Source of the DNA: Odiellus spinosus
Taxonomy: Eukaryota > Arthropoda > Arachnida > Opiliones > Phalangiidae
Assembly: GCA_963920705.1 (NCBI GenBank)
Contig: OY987237.1
Location: 15,406,601 to 15,470,600 of the forward strand
Length of the DNA stretch: 64,000 bases
Direction of reading: 5' to 3'
Shown here: one piece after another, positions 7,669 to 62,937 of the stretch
Layout of the letters: each line of letters starts with the position of its first letter
Numbering within the stretch: the first letter of the stretch is position 1
The notes under the pieces: model-generated
The model's database searches: none
What the model was told of the DNA's origin: nothing
Seen by the model: only the letters and a program-made list of their open reading frames with translations
Made by a program: the position numbers and the translations under genes

Positions 7669-7870
7669 ACTCCATCGAACTTCTGCTACATTTTTTCAGC
7701 TTACCTCTTGTAAAATATTTGAAAATAAGAGACTTTTTGGTTTGTTTATATTCAATTTTTTTTTTATTGAATTAAAGTGATAAACTGTGAAATCTTGAAT
7801 TTTAATTAAAACAAAAGTTCAACTCTTACAAGGAATTTTAAGATAAATGTAAAACGATTCAAGTTACTCG

Positions 7871-9708
7871 TCAATACAAAATGTTCGGTACTTGTTCGTA
7901 TAAATAATCTCTTTCAAGGGTTTCTAGCTTCATTTTAATGAAACCTTTCAGACCCATTTGCGGGTTATTTAACCATTGATTTAAAACATCATAATTTGGA
8001 GCATTTTTATCCAAATCACGAGTAAGTTGCTTCAAAAAGTTCCTAATAATGCTCTTACCATGTCCGTTATAATGCAAGCCCAAGGCTCGGACGAATCGAT
8101 ACAAATGGCATTGAATAAGGGTATGAAAAGCTACCAAATTAACCGCGTCTAAACTCTTTGCTTCGGCACAACCACCTTTTCTTATTGTTTCCATCCAAAG
8201 TCCTGTAGTTTTTTTAAGAGTCTCTTGATGACATTTGAAACCACCAAAATCTCTCGCAACAAATCCAGTTATAGCTTTCGTTTTGGAGTCAACTCTCAGT
8301 AACATATTTTGAGCATGGGCCTCAAACGTAAAACCGTATTCCACCAGTGGCGGTATCAAAACCTCTAGTATAACTCTAGCGTAGGATTGAAACCATTTAA
8401 TTTTAAGATCAACTGTATCTAAATTAAATATCTCGCAAACTCTGGGTATTCCTCGACTACTTAATTCGGTCAATGCCATACAAGGAATAATAATTTCGTC
8501 GCGGCCCTCGGTTAGAGATTCGATACTCTCTCTAAATATAGCTGCCATATGTTTGGCTACGTTGATATCTAGATGGTTTGACAAGGCGCTGGATGTTTCT
8601 TTGGCGACTATCAACTTTTCCTTGTCTTTGATGACCTCATTCAATATGGGTTCCAATCCAGGCCCGATAAAAGATGACCACGGTGTAATGGTACGCTTGC
8701 TGGATGTGGTGACCATGCCCAAAGCCAACTTTAAGCTAAATTCTGGGAAGTCATCGAGGTTCAGCGTTCTGAGAGAAGCTTGAGCCATTGATTTCGCCGT
8801 GAATGGTAGAAGTCGTACATCATCGTGGAAGTATAGGAAAATGTTAGGTAATTGAAGATGGTGTACGGGAAATACGACATATTCATCTTCATTGGGTAAA
8901 TCGGCCTTCTCTATGGATAATCTCTTCAGGAACGTTTTCATGGTCTCTTCGTAAGGTCCTCTGATTATCACGGAACTTCTCTTGACCGCGAGAAAGTTAA
9001 CGGTGACCTCGAAGACATCGTTTTGCGGTGATAAGCGTGCCATAGGTGGTTCGGTGTAACGAGAACGATGCATTGGATGCGTCGCGTGACCTTCGATCAA
9101 GCTCTGTTCCCATTCCAGAATAGTTGATTCCAAAGTTGGATCTTTGGGCGGGAATTGGTACGAGTGAACCTGACATTCAACCGAATTGGCTATCTCTTCG
9201 CAAACTGTTTTAATTTTTTCCTTGTCGGCGTTGTGCCAATGAAGTACGCGACGAGCTACTTGGACGGGATCTCTTAATTCGACCAGGACACCATCAAGGT
9301 CCTCTAAAACTGTTGGCCCACATTCGTCCGTATCCAAAAGAGTTACGATTCCAAGATTGGTATCAATGTACGGTGTTTCCAGAAGATTCATGTAATAAGT
9401 GAAAGTCTGGAAAAGTTTAAGCAGTCATTCTTGATTTGATTCGCTCTTTCAAGAGTAAATCAATGTCTTACCTTGGGTCCGTCTCCTTGAGGTTTGAGGG
9501 TTACCATTTTAGGTGTTTCCTGGTCTTCTCCTTGGAACAAGGATGTTTCGAGGAACCGTTCGTTAACCAAACAAGAAATTAATCTTTTCATCGACGCGTA
9601 TTGCGCCTTTCTGAAGAGGACATCTATTCTCTTAGGGTTCGTTTTGAGCGAAGCGTAGTAGCTTCGGTCATTCTCTGAAGACAATCTATATACTTCGTTC
9701 AAAGACAT
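7871..9708 (-). CDS. IucA/IucC family siderophore synthetase (NIS synthetase)
   Basis: Two exons, 9472-9708 and 7871-9406, split by a 65-bp GT-AG intron, give about 590 residues, the usual full length of the family. Recognisable NIS-synthetase motifs in order: EGHATHPMHRSR (the GHPxHPxxKxR-type motif), KLALGMVTTSSKRTI (the TSSxRT nucleotide-binding stretch), FEAHAQNMLLRVD (ExHxQN) and FVARDFGG (RDxxG). Known of the family: these enzymes use ATP to join citrate or related acids to amines or alcohols when making hydroxamate or citrate siderophores, in bacteria and some fungi. The substrate here cannot be read from sequence. Such a gene is unusual in animals; the intron, an upstream TATA box and flanking animal genes argue for an acquired, naturalised gene and not contamination. 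No other siderophore gene is nearby. No signal peptide or membrane segment is evident. Confidence 0.9.
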
Positions 9709-9750: not shown

Positions 9751-9818
9751 TTTATAAACCACTCGTTGCTCTGTCTGAAGATTCAATTTTATTGTTAAAA
9801 GTAATATTCTTGACGTCA
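9751..9818 (-). promoter_or_regulatory. TATA box and CRE upstream of the siderophore synthetase
   Basis: Read on the minus strand, TTTATAAAC at 9750-9758 lies about 43 bp before the start codon at 9708, and a perfect TGACGTCA palindrome sits at 9811-9818. The positions suit a core promoter and a proximal activator site. Role inferred from position only. Confidence 0.5.
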
Positions 9819-10460: not shown

Positions 10461-12463
10461 TCATTCGCAACCCATGTCATTTGGAGCAGGATATCCCCTC
10501 AGTTCTTTTGCCAAGGTCTTTAGTAAGGGATAAGGCTCTTTGCAACATATTCCACGGAAATCGTCCAAATCTAAGGCCCAAACCATAGCACCTCCTAACC
10601 CTAGTTCTTTGATAAATTCGGCTTTACGGGACACAGCGGGGATATCGTCGTAACCAACCCATTGATTGCCTAAATAAGCGTAGGGTCCAGCGAAAGGATC
10701 AACTTCCTTCGTCCATTTACCTTCTTTCACGTCACGACATATCTAAGAAGGTTTAATTGCTATTAGTGGTCAAAAATAAAACTTGAGAAAACTCCGCTTG
10801 AAATGATTACTTCGTAATAGGCCAAGAAACCTCCAGCGCCAGTATTTTTACCGGCTTCTCCTGGTCCAGCAGTTAGCGCGTTGATTCCGTGGTTTTTGGC
10901 GTCGGCCAAAGTAAACGATCGACCGTACAGTGGAATTCCAACTATAACCTTTTTAGGGTCGGCTCCTTTGTGCAACCAATAATTAATTGAATAGTTCTAA
11001 GAGAAAAGGTGATTATGATTAGCCAGTGAACTTGTCACTCTACGGAAGAATGTTCTGGACTTACGACATTGAATTCGGGAATGAAATCACCCGGTCGGTA
11101 ATACATAGGCGCGTTAGTCCCAGTCTGTTTATCCCAAGAACCTGTGCAATAATTAAGAGACACTTGGATTTGCGAAACGAGGAGGCCTAAGGTCCTAAAC
11201 TATCGAATATTACTTCAAAGGGGCAGAAGACATGGTACTAAAACCGTAAACGGAAAAAAACGGTTGGGTTCGTGAACTAAAAGGACACCTTATGACAGAA
11301 ATATTTCAAACCGTGCAAGTCGTAGGTCATGACGTTGATTAAGTCCAAAGATTTAGAAACGGATGGGACATCGTAGGCGTTGTCTATAGTGGCTTGTCCG
11401 GCGGACACGGCTGCTGTTAGGAGCAAACGAGGTGTCTGAGCGTCAAAAGCTACACGAAGTTCTTGAAGAAACAGCGCGTAGTTTTTCTTGTCGGTATGTG
11501 CGGATTGGTCGCAGTTTCCTTGCCAACATCCAGGGTATTCCCAATCCAAATCTAATCCGTCGAAGCCATACTTTTTTACAATTTCGACAGCTGCTGTAAC
11601 GAATCGACTTCGTTTTAGGGGATCGCTGACCAAAAGGGAGTACTTGTCCCCCGCACTATCGTTCCATCCGCCCAACGATAATAGTATCTTCAAAAGAGGA
11701 TTCTTTGACTTCAGTTTGACGATACGCTATGACAATAGGCACTATTAAGTTTTTTTTTAATGTTATTAATTAATAAGCATATACCTCGTAAAAATTGTTA
11801 TCTAAGTCTGCCCAAGAGTCGTATACTTTAGGCACGAAATTCTCATTATCTAAGGTGGCAAATCCATAATTTATGTGACTGCAGAGAAACGGGTCCACGT
11901 TTTCGGGCAAGTACTTTCCTTCGTTCTGCCGATACCAAGCCCAATTAGTGAAGTAACAAACCATGACGTATTCACCGGTTCGATTAGCATCAGGTGTATA
12001 AGGTTTAAATGTTATTGGAGATTCAGTTGTGGCTTTTGTGGGCTCCGTCCATCCTCTGGTAGGTTGATTCTGGTCCGAGCTACGAGTGACGTCTGTTGGG
12101 TTAGGTTCGGGTTCAACTGAATGGGAACCTCCCTGACAATCTTCAGTGTTTGCTGGCCAGTCACATCTGTTAACAATTTAGGGTATGATAAAACCATTTA
12201 AGAAATTTGAGCTGCAGAATTTACCCATTGCTTTTGGAATTGAACACTGTACCAAGGGAACATTGGAATCTGAACAGTGTTCCTTCGGAACAGATGTAAA
12301 AAACGGAACAGTCTGATGGAGAAGAAATAAAACCAGTTTTTCCGTATTTTGGGTCGCAAGTAACATTATCTACATTGGCTGAGAGCGACGGTAATTTCAA
12401 ACAATTCGCTTCTGCGTGGCTTACCACGACAATCGCTAGAAGAATTAATTCTAAAGTACTCAT
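10461..12463 (-). CDS. secreted GH18 chitinase with N-terminal CBM14 domain
   Basis: Six exons join in phase: 12225-12463, 11785-12166, 11312-11726, 11065-11141, 10811-10996 and 10461-10742; about 526 residues. A signal peptide (STLELILLAIVVVSHAEA) is followed by one peritrophin-type chitin-binding domain (CDPKYGKTGFISSPSDCSVF.. through NGCDWPANTEDC), a Thr/Pro/Glu-rich linker, then the GH18 barrel starting at YVMVCYFTNWAWYR. The catalytic motif GLDLDWEYPG is intact, with SLGGW before it and VMTYDLHG, GIPLYGRSF and GAMVWALDLDDF after it. Known role: hydrolysis of chitin in cuticle, peritrophic matrix or food. Most arthropod chitinases carry CBM14 after the catalytic domain; here it comes first. 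The exon 3 donor is GTTTGA (11311), which restores DLHGSWD. No transmembrane segment is seen, so secretion is expected. Confidence 0.95.
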
Positions 12464-12469
12464 GGTAGA

Positions 12470-12700
12470 ATCTTAGATAATTATTGTACTAGCTAGCCGT
12501 TTTTATACACCCCAATGTTTATATGTTGTGACTTAATTATTTATCGTTTGACATACATTCGTCAATTATGTTCTAAGGTCATGATTGAATCTGAGATAAT
12601 TAATATTCGAGTATCCGTTTTTATACAATCTTGTGTTTACTTGTCTTTATTATTTTTCATTCGACATATAAAATGTCAATTACGATATGTGTATCGTGTC
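12470..12700 (-). promoter_or_regulatory. chitinase promoter, tandemly duplicated
   Basis: On the minus strand a TATA box (GTATAAAAAC, about 12499-12508) lies some 40 bp upstream of the chitinase start. The stretch from about 12466 to 12570 is repeated, diverged, at about 12584-12690: each copy has GAATCTKAGATAATTA, CCGTTTTTATAC and TTATTTNTCRTTYGACATA in the same order. The second copy carries its own TATA-like string near 12622. Confidence 0.6.
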
Positions 12701-18947: not shown

Positions 18948-37489
<18,542 letters not shown>

Positions 37490-42060: not shown

Positions 42061-42775
42061 CAGGGTGTTTCGGAAATGATGGACCGAGCTATGGGTTCTA
42101 CCAGAAGCCGATGAAACCCTCCTTTGAAGTCTATTACTCCCGGGTCTTGTCTACCCCTCTCTGTATGGGTTATTCTCAAAAGGCGCGATTCGTACGCCTC
42201 CTAACGGTAGATATTTTCGGAGCTGGAGTTCGTCGAGCAAATATCTCTAGCAGCCTTGGAATTCGTTAAAAAACGTCGTCGTTTGTGGAGAGAGAGAATT
42301 TCCAATTTTCCGTAGACAGGGGGGATGAAGTAGGACCCCTTCTAACTCGTAAAATTGTGAATTTTACCCATACAGAGAGGAGCGCTATATGGAACATTGG
42401 AGTAGTAGACTTCAAAGGAGGGTTTCATCGGCTTCTGGTTCTACGGGTCATTTTAAGACGAAAATGAACTATGACGTTTTGTCCTACGGGGCACCGTTTA
42501 AGAGTTACGAAATGAATCATGTAAGGATGACCCCTTAACGTATACTCAATGATAAAATACGTTTAGTTATTTAACTAGTTTTTAAAAGAACGCGTTTGAA
42601 AAAAATTGATTTTCAGCATTGAGTATACGTTTATTAACGTACGTTAAGGGGTCATCCGTACATGATTCATTTCGTAACTCTTAAACGGCGCCCCGTACGA
42701 CAAAACGTTATAGACCATTTTCATCTTAAAATGACCCATAGTAGCTCGGTCCTACCACCATTTCGAAACACCCTG
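42061..42775. mobile_element. foldback element interrupted by a younger element
   Basis: Ends CAGGGTGTTTCG (42061) and its complement (42764-42775). The two arms pair over most of about 170 bp once the inserted CAGAAGCCG element (42102-42437) is removed: GGACCGAGCTA.., GGGTCATTTTAAGA, GTTTAAGAGTTACGAAATGA, GGATGACCCCTTAACGTA and TATACTCAATG occur in both arms. No open frame and no clear target duplication. Confidence 0.85.
42102..42437 (+). mobile_element. CAGAAGCCG element copy 2 (336 bp, 7-bp TSD)
   Basis: Target duplication GTTCTAC at 42095-42101 and 42438-42444. Inserted into the left arm of the foldback element at 42061-42775. Confidence 0.95.
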
Positions 42776-46785: not shown

Positions 46786-46792
46786 ATAATAC

Positions 46793-47129
46793 CAGAAGCC
46801 GATGAAACCCTCCTTTGAAGTCTATTACTCCCGGGTCTTGTCTTCCCCTCTCTGTATGGGTTAGTTTCAAAAATCGCGATTCGTACGCCTCCTAACGGTA
46901 GATGTTTTCGGAGCGGGAGCTCGTCGAGCGAATATCTCTAGCAGCCTCGGAGTTCGTCCAAAAAACGTCGTCGTTTGTGGAGAAAGAGAATTTCCAATTT
47001 TCCGTAGAGAGGGGGGATGAAGTAGGACCCCTTCTAACTCGTAAAATTGGGAATTTTACCCATACAGAGAGGAGCGCTATATCGAACATTGGAGTAGTAG
47101 ACTTCAAAGGAGGGTTTCATCGGCTTCTG
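46793..47129 (+). mobile_element. CAGAAGCCG element copy 3 (337 bp, 7-bp TSD)
   Basis: Target duplication ATAATAC (46786-46792) and ATGATAC (47130-47136), one mismatch, suggesting an older insertion. It stands at the left edge of a tandem duplication. Confidence 0.9.
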
Positions 47130-47760
47130 ATGATACCGATACATCATGAGCCCCACTCGCTGGAATTTACAGGAGAATCAGTACAGGAGTCATTAAACAA
47201 TTTAGTTAATTGAACAGGGCTATGATTTCTTACCCATTAGATTAACGTATTATGAAATCTACCTGTAAATAATACCTATACATCATGAGAACCCCAACTT
47301 TCATGATATATCGCTGGAATTTACAGGGTAATCAGTACAGGAGTCATTAAACAATTTAGTTAATTGAACAGGGCAGAAGCCGATGAAACCCTCCTTTGAA
47401 GTCTACTACTCCAATGTTCGAAATAGCGCTCCTCTCTGTATGGGTAAAATTCCCAATTTTACGAGTTAGAAGGGGTCCTACTTCATCCCCCCCCTGTCTA
47501 CGGAAAATTGGAAATTCTCTCTCTCCACAAACGACGACGTTTTTTGGACGAACTCCGAGGCTGCTAGAGATATTCGCTCGACGAGCTCCCGCTCCGAAAA
47601 CATCTACCGTTAGGAGGCGTACGGATCGCGCCTTTTGAGAATAACCCATACAGAGAGGGGTAGACAAGACCCGGGAGTAATAGACTTCAAAGGAGGGTTT
47701 CATCGGCTTCTGAACAGGGCTATGATTTCTTACCCCTTAGATTAACGTGTTATAAATAAT
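47130..47760 (+). repeat. tandem duplication split by an inserted element
   Basis: A unit of about 137 bp beginning ATACCKATACATCATGAG and including CGCTGGAATTTACAGG and TTAGTTAATTGAACAGGG occurs at about 47131-47269 and again at about 47270-47373. The second copy continues after the inserted element at 47713-47760 (GCTATGATTTCTTACCCCTT). The first copy therefore shows the uninterrupted state. Confidence 0.85.
47374..47712 (-). mobile_element. CAGAAGCCG element copy 4 (339 bp, 7-bp TSD)
   Basis: Target duplication AACAGGG at 47367-47373 and 47713-47719, perfect. The neighbouring tandem copy carries a single AACAGGG at the same place. Confidence 0.95.
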
Positions 47761-52339: not shown

Positions 52340-55300
52340 TCTCCAGGGTTTTTTTTTTTTGAAATGGTTTCTAAGTCTCCAGGGTTTTTTTTGAAATGGT
52401 TTCTAAGTCTCCAGGGTTTTTTTGAAATGGTTTCTAAGTCTCCAGGGTTTTTTTGAAATGGTTTCTAAGTCTCCAGGTTTTTTTTTGAAATGGTTTCTAA
52501 GTCTCCAGGGTTTTTTGAAATGGTTTCTAAGTCTCCAGGGTTTTTTGAAATGGTTTCTAAGTCTCCAGGGTTTTTTTTTTTTGAAATGGTTTCTAAGTCT
52601 CCAAGGTTTTTTTGAAATGGTTTCTAAGTCTCCAGGGTTTTTTTTTTTTGAAATGGTTTCTAAGTCTCCAAGGTTTTTTTGAAATGGTTTCTAAGTCTCC
52701 AGGGTTTTTTTGAAATGGTTTCTAAGTCTCCAGGGTTTTTTTGAAATGGTTTCTAAGTCTCCAGGGTTTTTTTGAAATGGTTTCTAAGTCTCCAGGGTTT
52801 TTTTGAAATGGTTTCTAGGTCTCCAGGGTTTTTTTTGAAATGGTTTCTAAGTCTCCAAGGTTTTTTTGAAATGGTTTCTAAGTCTCCAGGGTTTTTTTGA
52901 AATGGTTTCTAAGTCTCCAGGGTTTTTTTGAAATGGTTTCTAAGTCTCCAGGGTTTTTTTGAAATGGTTTCTAAGTCTCCAGGGTTTTTTTGAAATGGTT
53001 TCTAAGTCTCCAGGGTTTTTTTTGAAATGGTTTCTAGGTCTCCAGGGTTTTTTTTGAAATGGTTTCTAAGTCTCCAAGGTTTTTTTGAAATGGTTTCTAA
53101 GTCTCCAGGGTTTTTTTGAAATGGTTTCTAAGTCTCCAGGGTTTTTTTGAAATGGTTTCTAAGTCTCCAGGGTTTTTTTGAAATGGTTTCTAAGTCTCCA
53201 GGGTTTTTTTGAAATGGTTTCTAGGTCTCCAGGGTTTTTTTTGAAATGGTTTCTAAGTCTCCAAGGTTTTTTTGAAATGGTTTCTAAGTCTCCAGGGTTT
53301 TTTTGAAATGGTTTCTAAGTCTCCAGGGTTTTTTTGAAATGGTTTCTAAGTCTCCAGGGTTTTTTTGAAATGGTTTCTAAGTCTCCAGGGTTTTTTTGAA
53401 ATGGTTTCTAGGTCTCCAGGGTTTTTTTGAAATGGTTTCTAAGTCTCCAGGGTTTTTTTGAAATGGTTTCTAAGTCTCCAGGGTTTTTTTGAAATGGTTT
53501 CTAAGTCTCCAGGGTTTTTTTGAAATGGTTTCTAAGTCTCCAGGGTTTTTTTTGAAATGGTTTCTAAGTCTCCAGGGTTTTTTGAAATGGTTTCTAAGTC
53601 TCCAGGGTTTTTTTTTTTTGAAATGGTTTCTAAGTCTCCAAGGTTTTTTTGAAATGGTTTCTAAGTCTCCAGGGTTTTTTTTTTTTGAAATGGTTTCTAA
53701 GTCTCCAAGGTTTTTTTGAAATGGTTTCTAAGTCTCCAGGGTTTTTTTGAAATGGTTTCTAAGTCTCCAGGGTTTTTTTGAAATGGTTTCTAAGTCTCCA
53801 GGGTTTTTTTTGAAATGGTTTCTAAGTCTCCAAGGTTTTTTTGAAATGGTTTCTAAGTCTCCAGGGTTTTTTTGAAATGGTTTCTAAGTCTCCAGGGTTT
53901 TTTTGAAATGGTTTCTAAGTCTCCAGGGTTTTTTTGAAATGGTTTCTAGGTCTCCAGGGTTTTTTTGAAATGGTTTCTAAGTCTCCAGGGTTTTTTTTTG
54001 AAATGGTTTCTAAGTCTCCAAGGTTTTTTTGAAATGGTTTCTAAGTCTCCAGGGTTTTTTTGAAATGGTTTCTAAGTCTCCAGGGTTTTTTTGAAATGGT
54101 TTCTAAGTCTCCAGGGTTTTTTTGAAATGGTTTCTAAGTCTCCAGGGTTTTTTTGAAATGGTTTCTAAGTCTCCAGGGTTTTTTTGAAATGGTTTCTAAG
54201 TCTCCAGGGTTTTTTTGAAATGGTTTCTAAGTCTCCAGGGTTTTTTTGAAATGGTTTCTAAGTCTCCAGGGTTTTTTTTGAAATGGTTTCTAAGTCTCCA
54301 AGGTTTTTTTGAAATGGTTTCTAAGTCTCCAGGGTTTTTTTGAAATGGTTTCTAAGTCTCCAGGGTTTTTTTGAAATGGTTTCTAAGTCTCCAGGGTTTT
54401 TTTGAAATGGTTTCTAAGTCTCCAGGGTTTTTTTGAAATGGTTTCTAGGTCTCCAGGGTTTTTTTGAAATGGTTTCTAAGTCTCCAGGGTTTTTTTTGAA
54501 ATGGTTTCTAAGTCTCCAAGGTTTTTTTGAAATGGTTTCTAAGTCTCCAGGGTTTTTTTGAAATGGTTTCTAAGTCTCCAGGGTTTTTTGAAATGGTTTC
54601 TAAGTCTCCAGGGTTTTTTTGAAATGGTTTCTAAGTCTCCAAGGTTTTTTTGAAATGGTTTCTAAGTCTCCAGGGTTTTTTTGAAATGGTTTCTAAGTCT
54701 CCAGGGTTTTTTTGAAATGGTTTCTAAGTCTCCAGGGTTTTTTTGAAATGGTTTCTAAGTCTCCAGGGTTTTTTTGAAATGGTTTCTAAGTCTCCAGGGT
54801 TTTTTTGAAATGGTTTCTAAGTCTCCAGGGTTTTTTTGAAATGGTTTCTAAGTCTCCAGGGTTTTTTTTGAAATGGTTTCTAAGTCTCCAAGGTTTTTTT
54901 GAAATGGTTTCTAAGTCTCCAGGGTTTTTTTGAAATGGTTTCTAAGTCTCCAGGGTTTTTTTGAAATGGTTTCTAAGTCTCCAGGGTTTTTTTGAAATGG
55001 TTTCTAAGTCTCCAGGGTTTTTTTTGAAATGGTTTCTAAGTCTCCAGGGTTTTTTTTGAAATGGTTTCTAAGTCTCCAGGGTTTTTTGAAATGGTTTCTA
55101 AGTCTCCAGGGTTTTTTTGAAATGGTTTCTAAGTCTCCAGGGTTTTTTTGAAATGGTTTCTAAGTCTCCAGGGTTTTTTTTGAAATGGTTTCTAAGTCTC
55201 CAGGGTTTTTTTTGAAATGGTTTCTAAGTCTCCAGGGTTTTTTGAAATGGTTTCTAAGTCTCCAGGGTTTTTTTTTTTTGAAATGGTTTCTAAGTCTCCA

Positions 55301-56624
55301 AGGTTTTTTTGAAATGGTTTCTAAGTCTCCAGGGTTTTTTTTGAAATGGTTTCTAAGTCTCCAAGGTTTTTTTGAAATGGTTTCTAAGTCTCCAGGGTTT
55401 TTTTGAAATGGTTTCTAAGTCTCCAGGGTTTTTTTGAAATGGTTTCTAAGTCTCCAGGGTTTTTTTGAAATGGTTTCTAAGTCTCCAGGGTTTTTTTGAA
55501 ATGGTTTCTAGGTCTCCAGGGTTTTTTTGAAATGGTTTCTAAGTCTCCAGGGTTTTTTTTGAAATGGTTTCTAAGTCTCCAAGGTTTTTTTGAAATGGTT
55601 TCTAAGTCTCCAGGGTTTTTTTGAAATGGTTTCTAAGTCTCCAGGGTTTTTTGAAATGGTTTCTAAGTCTCCAGGGTTTTTTTGAAATGGTTTCTAAGTC
55701 TCCAAGGTTTTTTTGAAATGGTTTCTAAGTCTCCAGGGTTTTTTTGAAATGGTTTCTAAGTCTCCAGGGTTTTTTGAAATGGTTTCTAAGTCTCCAGGGT
55801 TTTTTTGAAATGGTTTCTAAGTCTCCAGGGTTTTTTTTGAAATGGTTTCTAAGTCTCCAGGGTTTTTTTTGAAATGGTTTCTAAGTCTCCAGGGTTTTTT
55901 TGAAATGGTTTCTAAGTCTCCAGGGTTTTTTTGAAATGGTTTCTAAGTCTCCAGGGTTTTTTTGAAATGGTTTCGAAGTCTCCAGGGTTTTTTTGAAATG
56001 GTTTCTAAGTCTCCAGGGTTTTTTTGAAATGGTTTCTAAGTCTCCAGGGTTTTTTTGAAATGGTTTCTAAGTCTCCAGGGTTTTTTTGAAATGGTTTCTA
56101 AGTCTCCAGGGTTTTTTTGAAATGGTTTCTAAGTCTCCAGGGTTTTTTTGAAATGGTTTCTAAGTCTCCAGGGTTTTTTGAAATGGTTTCTAAGTCTCCA
56201 GGGTTTTTTTTGAAATGGTTTCTAAGTCTCCAAGGTTTTTTTGAAATGGTTTCTAAGTCTCCAGGGTTTTTTTGAAATGGTTTCTAAGTCTCCAGGGTTT
56301 TTTTGAAATGGTTTCTAAGTCTCCAGGGTTTTTTTGAAATGGTTTCTAAGTCTCCAGGGTTTTTTTGAAATGGTTTCTAAGTCTCCAGGGTTTTTTTGAA
56401 ATGGTTTCTAGGTCTCCAGGGTTTTTTTGAAATGGTTTCTAGGTCTCCAGGGTTTTTTTGAAATGGTTTCTAGGTCTCCAGGGTTTTTTTGAAATGGTTT
56501 CTAAGTCTCCAGGGTTTTTTTGAAATGGTTTCTAAGTCTCCAGGGTTTTTTTGAAATGGTTTCTAGGTCTCCAGGGTTTTTTTGAAATGGTTTCTAAGTC
56601 TCCAGGGTTTTTTTGAAATGGTTT
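52340..56624. repeat. 31-bp satellite array, about 138 copies
   Basis: Unit TTGAAATGGTTTCTAAGTCT plus CCAGGG and a T-tract of 6-12 bases; period mostly 31 bp over 4.3 kb. Variants CCAAGG and CTAGGTCT recur at roughly regular distances (for example CTAGGTCT at 52817, 53034, 53224 and 53408), showing block duplications of six or seven units. Copies are almost identical, so the array is young or well homogenised. All long open frames over it are products of repetition, not genes. Confidence 0.98.
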
Positions 56625-58797: not shown

Positions 58798-58804
58798 CTA
58801 CGGT

Positions 58805-59142
58805 CAGAAGCCGATGAAACCCTCCTTTGAAGTCTATTACTCCCGGGTCTTGTCTACCCCTCTCTGTATGGGTTATTCTCAAAAGGCGCGATTCGTACGC
58901 CTCCTAACGGTAGATATTTTCGGAGTGGGAGTTCGTCCAGCGAATATCTCAAGCAGCCTCGGAGTTAGTCCAAAAAAACGTCGTCGTTTGTGGAGAGAGA
59001 GAATTTCCAATTTTCCGTAGACAGGGGGGATGAAGTAGGACCCCTTCTAACTCGTAAAATTGAGAATTTTACCCATACAGAGAGGAGCGCTATATGGAAC
59101 ATTGGAGTAGTAGACTTCAAAGGAGGGTTTCATCGGCTTCTG
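58805..59142 (+). mobile_element. CAGAAGCCG element copy 5 (338 bp, 7-bp TSD)
   Basis: Target duplication CTACGGT at 58798-58804 and 59143-59149, perfect. Followed directly by the family at 59150-59665. Confidence 0.95.
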
Positions 59143-59149
59143 CTACGGT

Positions 59150-62411: not shown

Positions 62412-62937
62412 CGCGTTCATACTAAGCCTTGGCGTCGATTCAAAACGGAACTGTTTCTCTCAAATCGATTTCTCGTAATTGCTTCGGGAACCAGTTTAAC
62501 CAGAAGCCGATGAAACCCTCCTATGAAGTCTACTACTCTAATGTTCGATATAGCGCTCCTCTCTGTATGGGTAAAATTCTCAATTTTTCGAGATCGGAGG
62601 GGTCCTACTTCATACCCCCCTGTCTACGGAAAATTGGAAATTCTCTCTCTCCACAAACGACGACGTTTTTTTGACGAACTCCGAGGCTGCTAGAGATATT
62701 CGCTCGACGAACTCCCGCTCCGAAAATATCTACCGTTAGGAGTCGCACGAATCGCGCTTTTTGAAACTAACCCATACAGAGAGGGGTAGACAAGACCCGG
62801 GAGTAATAGACTTCAAAGGAGGGTTTCGTTTACTTCTGGTTTAACCGATGTTAAAATCGCCAGGAATCGTTTTAATCGTCATGCTTCCACGCATTGTCTG
62901 TTTAAATCGATTCCAAGGCCTAAGTACGAACGGAGCT
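62412..62937 (-). mobile_element. CGAAGCAGTTTCGAG-family element interrupted by a CAGAAGCCG element
   Basis: Left end GCGTTCATACTAAGCCTTGG and right end with its diverged complement (CCAAGGCCTAAGTACGAACG) pair over about 34 bp. Removing the insertion leaves an element of about 180 bp related, inverted, to 59150-59665. Confidence 0.75.
62501..62838 (-). mobile_element. CAGAAGCCG element copy 6 (338 bp, 7-bp TSD)
   Basis: Target duplication GTTTAAC at 62494-62500 and 62839-62845, perfect. The right terminal repeat is slightly decayed (GTTTACTTCTG). Confidence 0.93.

What the first reader, a model, noticed from the sequence alone, without database searches (positions are those of the whole stretch)
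7871..9708. A bacterial/fungal-type siderophore synthetase living as an intron-containing animal gene
The sequence shows a full-length IucA/IucC family enzyme with all signature motifs, interrupted by a 65-bp GT-AG intron, with a TATA box and CRE upstream and animal genes on both sides. Family knowledge: these enzymes make siderophores in bacteria and some fungi; animals are not normally thought to make them this way. Inference: horizontal transfer followed by naturalisation, perhaps for iron handling or for binding other metals. It stands next to a chitinase, but no other siderophore gene is near.
Basis: partly seen in the sequence, partly recalled or inferred. Interest (0 to 1): 0.8.

Follow-up and report, generated by a model that had tools for sequence, protein, structure and literature searches.

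The report
Siderophore-type enzyme gene in a harvestman
A harvestman (daddy-long-legs) chromosome carries an intact, intron-containing gene for an enzyme type that bacteria and some fungi use to build iron-scavenging molecules, so the animal may make its own metal chelator; this is untested, and where the gene came from is unresolved.

Summary
Spliced across a 65-bp GT-AG intron, window 9708..7871 (minus) encodes a 590-aa IucA/IucC-family NRPS-independent siderophore (NIS) synthetase: PF04183 E 3.5e-25, PF06276 E 1.5e-14. The window lies at 15.41-15.47 Mb of a 17.21-Mb contig; 16 of 16 chromosome lengths match the Odiellus spinosus assembly (Opiliones; PMC11503004). It is chromosome 13 of a harvestman, not a stray microbial contig. 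One match was found genome-wide.

It keeps 14 of 15 residues invariant in 45 bacterial relatives; one Glu is Gln. Exon 1 fits FslA-like and pooled NIS profiles better than 2000 shuffles, but not two other profiles.

Long bacterial matches (180+ residues) reach at most 34% identity, the branch is about 3 changes per site, and tests do not choose between subfamilies. The CRE motif occurs seven times in the window. Lack of neighbouring siderophore genes is no objection: fungal rhizoferrin needs one NIS enzyme (PMC10700112). I favour a lone synthetase joining citrate to a diamine. Product, expression and distribution in other animals are untested; structure prediction failed.

The parts
9472..9708 (-). 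Exon 1 of the NIS synthetase gene, ATG at 9708, aa 1-79
   Evidence: frame; 0 of 2000 shuffles as good against FslA-like and pooled NIS HMMs; not so against two other HMMs
9407..9471 (-). 65-bp intron, GT-AG
   Evidence: a 68-bp GT-AG intron is seen in an ornithine-decarboxylase-family gene of the same genome (located, measured)
7871..9406 (-). Exon 2, aa 80-590 and stop
   Evidence: the only match found in the genome
8468..9121 (-). IucA_IucC domain PF04183 (aa 175-392)
   Evidence: E 3.5e-25
7922..8395 (-). FhuF-like C-terminal domain PF06276 (aa 417-574)
   Evidence: E 1.5e-14
9074..9094 (-). EGHATHP motif (aa 184-190)
   Evidence: H189 and P190 invariant in 45 bacterial rows; G185 and H186 in at least 95%
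8765..8776 (-). SLRT motif (aa 290-293); its role in the nucleotide site is recalled
   Evidence: R292 invariant in 45 and in 61 rows; S290 and T293 in at least 90%
8306..8323 (-). EAHAQN motif (aa 441-446)
   Evidence: E441, H443, Q445, N446 invariant in 45 rows; N446 also in all 61
8249..8251 (-). Asp465 of the RDFGG motif
   Evidence: invariant in 45 and in 61 rows
7763..7768 (-). AATAAA polyadenylation-type signal, 103 nt after the stop
   Evidence: the only AATAAA on this strand between 7400 and 7900
9751..9758 (-). TTTATAAA, possible TATA box about 45 nt before the ATG
   Evidence: TATAAA occurs 58 and 59 times on the two strands of the window, so only suggestive
9811..9818 (.). TGACGTCA (CRE-like palindrome)
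   Evidence: seven occurrences in the window, so weak
10461..12472 (-). Neighbour: chitinase (CBM14 + GH18 pieces), same strand, upstream; host context, exact exon borders not worked out

Best explanation
This is a nuclear gene of the harvestman Odiellus spinosus for an NIS synthetase of the IucA/IucC superfamily. It was probably acquired long ago from a microbe and naturalised (intron, host flanks), and probably still makes a working enzyme. The enzyme most likely uses ATP to adenylate one carboxylate of citrate and joins it to an amine. With no hydroxamate or catechol genes needed, the simplest product is a citrate-diamine chelator of the rhizoferrin kind, made from citrate and putrescine, both ordinary animal metabolites. 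Shown: gene structure in DNA, family, a single match in the genome, chromosomal setting, retained conserved residues. Inferred: transfer, splicing in the cell, catalytic activity, substrates, and iron or other metal binding as the use.
For: Both family domains. Conservation of 14 of 15 invariant residues despite 16-24% identity, which argues for selection on the enzyme. Chromosome-scale placement and a single match. Exon 1 resembles the N-terminus of FslA-like and pooled NIS. The best NCBIfam model is FslA, the rhizoferrin enzyme (52.5 bits, far below its 1000-bit cut-off), above SbnF 44.1 and SbnC 24.1. In a draw of 398 Pseudomonadota genomes the top three of 8 hits were FslA-like and a fourth FslA-like protein ranked sixth (the second hit, L128, was not scanned but is 96% identical to the first, so the top three are in effect two kinds). 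One FslA-like hit sits beside an FslB-like exporter gene. Ornithine-decarboxylase-family exons are present in the genome (17 matches). Rhizopus rhizoferrin needs only one NIS enzyme (PMC10700112, passages).
Against: No tree places it inside FslA-like enzymes; the 398-genome ranking and the NCBIfam order are scores only. With HMMs built here it scores higher with SbnF/AsbB-like (120 bits, 26 rows) and two actinobacterial sets (107 and 105 bits, 5 rows each) than with FslA-like (86 bits, 4 rows); with four rows each the SbnF/AsbB set falls to 67 and the actinobacterial sets score 95 and 101, still above FslA-like. By BLAST the best bacterial rows are not FslA-like. Gln207 replaces a Glu found in 61 of 61 bacterial rows. 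No expression, structure or chemistry was available.
Confidence: 0.5

Rival explanations
1. The gene is an active carboxylate-amine ligase, but its product is not a siderophore: it makes a citrate or dicarboxylate amide used in something else, such as a gland secretion, cuticle chemistry or pigment.
For: No transporter or other siderophore gene was seen among the window pieces that I scanned (17 pieces); very long branch (2.85-3.2 changes per site) and the E207Q change fit altered use. The plasmid relative L033 sits among an opine-dehydrogenase-family gene and a PLP enzyme, showing varied settings for the family.
Against: Conserved residues of the family are kept; amides of citrate commonly bind iron (general chemistry).
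Confidence: 0.3
2. The gene is an old eukaryotic gene inherited vertically in a few animal and fungal lineages and lost in most; no transfer into the harvestman line took place.
For: No close bacterial relative: 17 of 1575 genomes drawn from four phyla hit at E<=1e-6, or 13 of 1571 without the four centre genomes that were chosen for having a hit; a position outside each bacterial clade sampled fits a separate eukaryotic lineage.
Against: The family is known as bacterial with some fungi (PMC10700112, passages; general knowledge); a long branch also follows from fast evolution after transfer.
Confidence: 0.17
3. The gene is an unexpressed relic.
For: No transcript evidence was available here; promoter motifs are weak.
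Against: Frame intact over 590 aa, with splice sites, a poly(A)-type signal and kept conserved residues at 16-24% identity to bacterial relatives.
Confidence: 0.05
4. It is microbial DNA misassembled into the chromosome.
For: None found.
Against: Intron; 41% GC3, within the range of the neighbouring chitinase pieces (39-50%); no long prokaryotic match above 34% identity; interior position on a 17.21-Mb chromosome of a HiFi plus Hi-C assembly.
Confidence: 0.02

Closest known systems
FslA-like / type A' NIS synthetases (FslA; fungal Rfs), rhizoferrin
   Same: Same two domains; FslA is the best NCBIfam model; exon 1 matches their N-terminus best of the HMMs tried; a one-enzyme pathway is possible.
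   Different: About a quarter identical over matched parts; not placed in their clade, though not excluded from it (AU p 0.444); in an arachnid with an intron. No fungal sequence was compared.
SbnF / AsbB-like NIS synthetases
   Same: Best solved-structure match AsbB 3to3 (E 1e-10); highest subfamily HMM score (120 bits, 26 rows).
   Different: The three annotated plasmid members looked at lie in multi-gene clusters; the window gene stands alone. Clade membership unresolved (AU p 0.516).
Horizontally acquired microbial genes in arthropods, e.g. the 11 cases in myriapods (PMC9151784)
   Same: Microbial-type enzyme with an intron on an arthropod chromosome.
   Different: That paper's main text has 'siderophore' once, in describing NRPSs, and 'IucA' not at all (passages).

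Membership tests
IucA/IucC (NIS synthetase) superfamily | PF04183 and PF06276 domains in order | tested here: met
   both above Pfam cut-offs
IucA/IucC (NIS synthetase) superfamily | Residues invariant across bacterial members | tested here: met
   14 of 15 (45 rows) and 7 of 8 (61 rows); Glu to Gln at 207 is the exception in both
IucA/IucC (NIS synthetase) superfamily | Three-domain NIS fold | not tested
IucA/IucC (NIS synthetase) superfamily | ATP-dependent carboxylate-amine condensation | not testable with these tools
   Needs biochemistry
Type A' (FslA/Rfs) subgroup | Falls in the clade of FslA-like enzymes | tested here: inconclusive
   (p 0.444)
SbnF/AsbB-like subgroup | Falls in that clade | tested here: inconclusive
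   (p 0.516)
Horizontally acquired animal gene | Resides in the animal nuclear genome with eukaryotic gene structure | tested here: met
   splicing itself not seen in RNA
Horizontally acquired animal gene | Nested inside a donor clade | tested here: inconclusive
   no fungal or other animal rows available
Horizontally acquired animal gene | Patchy presence among related animals | not testable with these tools
   No animal genome except the window's own was on hand
Hydroxamate siderophore pathway | Lys/Orn N-monooxygenase in the genome | tested here: inconclusive
   7 partial matches, best 37.8 bits; the best reads as an FMO by eye, not scanned against Pfam
Hydroxamate siderophore pathway | Hydroxamate acyltransferase (PF13523) in the genome | not tested
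   One search did not complete

The most novel reading that the evidence does not exclude
A harvestman makes its own small-molecule siderophore with one long-resident NIS synthetase and its own diamines, a single-enzyme citrate-based chelator pathway in an animal, used for iron uptake from food, iron withholding from microbes, or metal handling.
Probability: 0.35. Interest if true: 0.85.

Novelty: new variant of a known kind. Interest (0 to 1): 0.62.

Why it matters
As far as I know (general knowledge), animals are described as users or targets of microbial siderophores and not as makers by the NIS route. One gene with one intron makes a direct test possible: express it, give it citrate and diamines, and look for the product in harvestmen. 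Eight literature searches on the topic over open-licence full text listed no report of an IucA/IucC gene in an animal. Those listings are partial: 25 of 143, 2 of 2, 7 of 7, 12 of 1,575, 20 of 69, 25 of 2,523, 14 of 14 and 1 of 1 papers were shown. Supplements and subscription papers were not searched, so an earlier report or a database entry may exist.

Tried and rejected
Rejected: microbial contamination (chromosome position, intron). CRE as special evidence. A hydroxamate pathway from PF13434 hits: partial matches, best reads as FMO by eye. Viral carriers: two scans of viral contigs confirmed no relative. Assigning the protein to one NIS type: trees and AU tests do not decide; the AU test against the 11-row clade did not finish.

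Rows dropped before counts. Making A3: blastp rows lacking an SxRT-type motif near the match were left out (117 kept), then thinned at 55% identity to 45. Of these 45, 44 were passed on (L097 was not) and L039, lost to the motif filter, was put back; ends of L040, L059, L064 and L065 were lengthened. One search left out two long outliers (L095_8339, L090_3056) and 7 of the 8 plasmid rows, and used 17 of the rows from L127-L157 (3 FslA-like, 14 others). One search left out 14 rows and added six new ones.

Literature seen: PMC3750580, PMC10700112, PMC9151784, PMC2231378, PMC2194727 and PMC11503004 as found passages only, with the abstract of PMC11503004 also in a listing; PMC13342648, PMC13320244 and PMC13389597 searched for terms in the main text with no occurrence; all others as search listings. 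Active-site roles of NIS residues in AcsD or DesD are recalled, not read.

Full report
What is there. On the minus strand, 9708..9472 and 9406..7871 join across a 65-bp GT-AG intron into one 590-aa frame; read through, the intron brings a stop four residues after exon 1. Pfam finds IucA_IucC (aa 175-392, E 3.5e-25) and FhuF (aa 417-574, E 1.5e-14), the two domains of NRPS-independent siderophore (NIS) synthetases. The closest solved chain by sequence is the petrobactin enzyme AsbB, 3to3, at E 1e-10; profiles that mix the window protein with bacterial relatives bring in AcsD, IucA, IucC, the alcaligin enzyme and DesD. Exon 1 lies outside the Pfam matches, but it scores 8.6 bits against FslA-like and 6.7 bits against pooled NIS profiles, beyond all 2000 shuffles in both; against the SbnF/AsbB profile and one actinobacterial profile it is ordinary. 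This is sequence evidence, modest in strength, that exon 1 and exon 2 belong to one protein and so that the intron is real. An AATAAA lies 103 nt beyond the stop. A 68-bp GT-AG intron in an ornithine-decarboxylase-family gene shows that introns of this size occur in the genome.

Where it is. The window is 15,406,601-15,470,600 of a 17.21-Mb contig in a 443-Mb genome. The lengths of 16 large contigs agree, 16 of 16, with Table 3 of the Odiellus spinosus genome note (PMC11503004, passages), and its mitochondrial genome is 16.07 kb as is contig 286. The paper gives 443.70 Mb in 310 scaffolds and G000 has 443.07 Mb in 286 contigs, so the held copy differs slightly; contigs C9 and C10 (2.3 and 1.4 Mb) are not among the listed chromosomes. 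The window is therefore on chromosome 13 of a harvestman. Independent signs agree: no tRNA-Leu between cox1 and cox2, unlike the usual insect and crustacean order (general knowledge), and a single 7tm_6 match, where insects have many (general knowledge). Neighbours are animal-type genes: pieces of a chitinase with CBM14 and GH18 immediately upstream, an EHD-like GTPase, a TPR protein, an otopetrin and a short-chain dehydrogenase. The gene is the only match found in the genome by protein and by Pfam model.

Is it still an enzyme? In an alignment with 45 bacterial NIS proteins it is 16-24% identical, yet it keeps 14 of the 15 columns invariant in all 45, and 7 of 8 invariant in a second set of 61; at the looser 90% rule it keeps 24 of 29 and 20 of 24. 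The 14 are H189 and P190 of EGHxxHP, H261, Q264, R292 of SxRT, K305, R317, R371, G437, E441, H443, Q445 and N446 of EAHxQN, and D465. That such residues hold ATP and citrate in AcsD is recalled, not read here. The one loss among invariant columns, in both sets, is Glu to Gln at 207; I do not know the role of that residue. At this divergence such retention points to selection for catalysis, but it is not a demonstration.

Which kind of NIS? Evidence is split and I report both sides. For type A' (rhizoferrin-like): FslA is the best NCBIfam model at 52.5 bits, though far under its 1000-bit cut-off. Of 8 hits in 398 Pseudomonadota genomes the first three are FslA-like and a fourth ranks sixth (the first two are 96% identical to each other). 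A search of 398 genomes of the same phylum with an FslA-like query found close FslA-like proteins (E <= 1e-80) in 4 genomes, the query's own included, so they are rare in the draw. For other types: BLAST ranks Glycomyces, Alteromonas and Methylorubrum proteins first, of which the Alteromonas one is SbnF-like and the Glycomyces one fits FslA (72.5 bits) better than SbnF (37 bits) though weakly. Profiles built here give SbnF/AsbB 120 bits (26 rows), two actinobacterial sets 107 and 105 (5 rows each), FslA-like 86 (4 rows), and three others 61, 38 and 20; with four rows each, SbnF/AsbB 67 and actinobacterial 95 and 101. Trees of 54, 62 and 54 proteins leave it on a branch of 2.85, 3.2 and 3.05 changes per site, joined weakly to a plasmid FslA-like protein (81/57), to an actinobacterial group (81/58), or to nothing. 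AU tests do not reject it with FslA-like (p 0.444) or with SbnF/AsbB proteins (p 0.516). It lies across a 100/100 branch from a group of 11 (later 7) rows; the AU test for that group did not finish.

Origin. No near bacterial relative turned up: 17 of 1575 genomes from four phyla matched at E <= 1e-6 (8 of 398, 3 of 396, 3 of 396, 3 of 385). Each draw includes one centre genome chosen for having a hit, so 13 of 1571 without them; the best match, 63.8 bits and 29% identity, is in a centre genome, and the best elsewhere is 54.1 bits and 27%. Over stretches of 180 residues or more the highest identities seen were 34% and 32%; only short pieces go higher. Plasmids gave 67 records, the 40 listed at 28% identity or less; viral contigs none. 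No fungal or other animal genomes could be searched. Transfer is therefore likely from what is known of the family, old if real, and of unknown donor; descent from an early eukaryote with many losses stays open.

How it would work. NIS enzymes adenylate a carboxylate, usually of citrate, and couple it to an amine (general knowledge). Rhizopus makes rhizoferrin with one NIS enzyme (PMC10700112, passages). The harvestman has ornithine-decarboxylase-family exons (17 matches at about eight places), as expected of an animal that makes putrescine. Genome hits to the hydroxylase family of hydroxamate pathways were partial and the best reads as an FMO by eye; the acyltransferase family was not tested. 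What the product does is open: uptake, withholding iron from microbes, other metals, or a different use of the same bond.

TGACGTCA occurs seven times and TATAAA 117 times (58 and 59 on the two strands) in the window, so the promoter elements carry little weight. Codon usage correlates moderately with five neighbouring coding pieces (r 0.57, 59 codons) and GC3 is 0.41 against 0.39-0.59.

Limits. Structure prediction was interrupted and then switched off. No expression data, no eukaryote genome collection and no supplements were available. The gene is real and unusual; the siderophore itself is inference.

Noticed in passing
52354-56624: A 31-bp tandem array of about 136 copies, 96% matches; a second 31-bp array with a different unit lies at 23013-23978 (31 copies).
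   Followed up: no
35654-35991, 42091-42444, 46790-47136, 47374-47712, 58802-59149, 62490-62849: Six copies, in both orientations, of a roughly 340-bp repeat (pairwise 84-99% over the listed pieces), with a partly open frame; may be a short non-autonomous element.
   Followed up: no
20589-60551, scattered: Dispersed and tandem 28-bp units around TCAGGGAATTT, four of them followed by a shared longer stretch (20812-20895 and relatives).
   Followed up: no
Own genome C17 (chromosome 15), several places between 1.1 and 4.4 Mb: Many nuclear copies of mitochondrial cox1: 9 of the 13 listed COX1 matches lie on this one chromosome.
   Followed up: no
Own genome C286 (L011, L012): Mitochondrial order with tRNA-Ile and tRNA-Gln next to tRNA-Leu(tag), by where rrnL should lie, and about 870 bp between the two tRNA-Leu genes with only one extra ARAGORN call in it.
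   Followed up: partly
Own genome C3:17.02 and 17.55 Mb, C16, C1, C5: Orn/Arg decarboxylase-family exons at about eight places, possibly a small expansion that could supply diamines.
   Followed up: partly
L033 1-5573: On the Sinorhizobium fredii NGR234 plasmid an FslA-like NIS gene stands among an opine-dehydrogenase-family gene, a PLP enzyme, a cysteine-synthase-family gene and an MFS transporter: an opine-like or siderophore cluster.
   Followed up: no
21500-22150 and 28123-30753: Two minus-strand EHD-like stretches; the second has GTPase and EHD_N matches and a long acidic, repeat-rich N-terminal part; the first had no Pfam match and is judged by eye.
   Followed up: no
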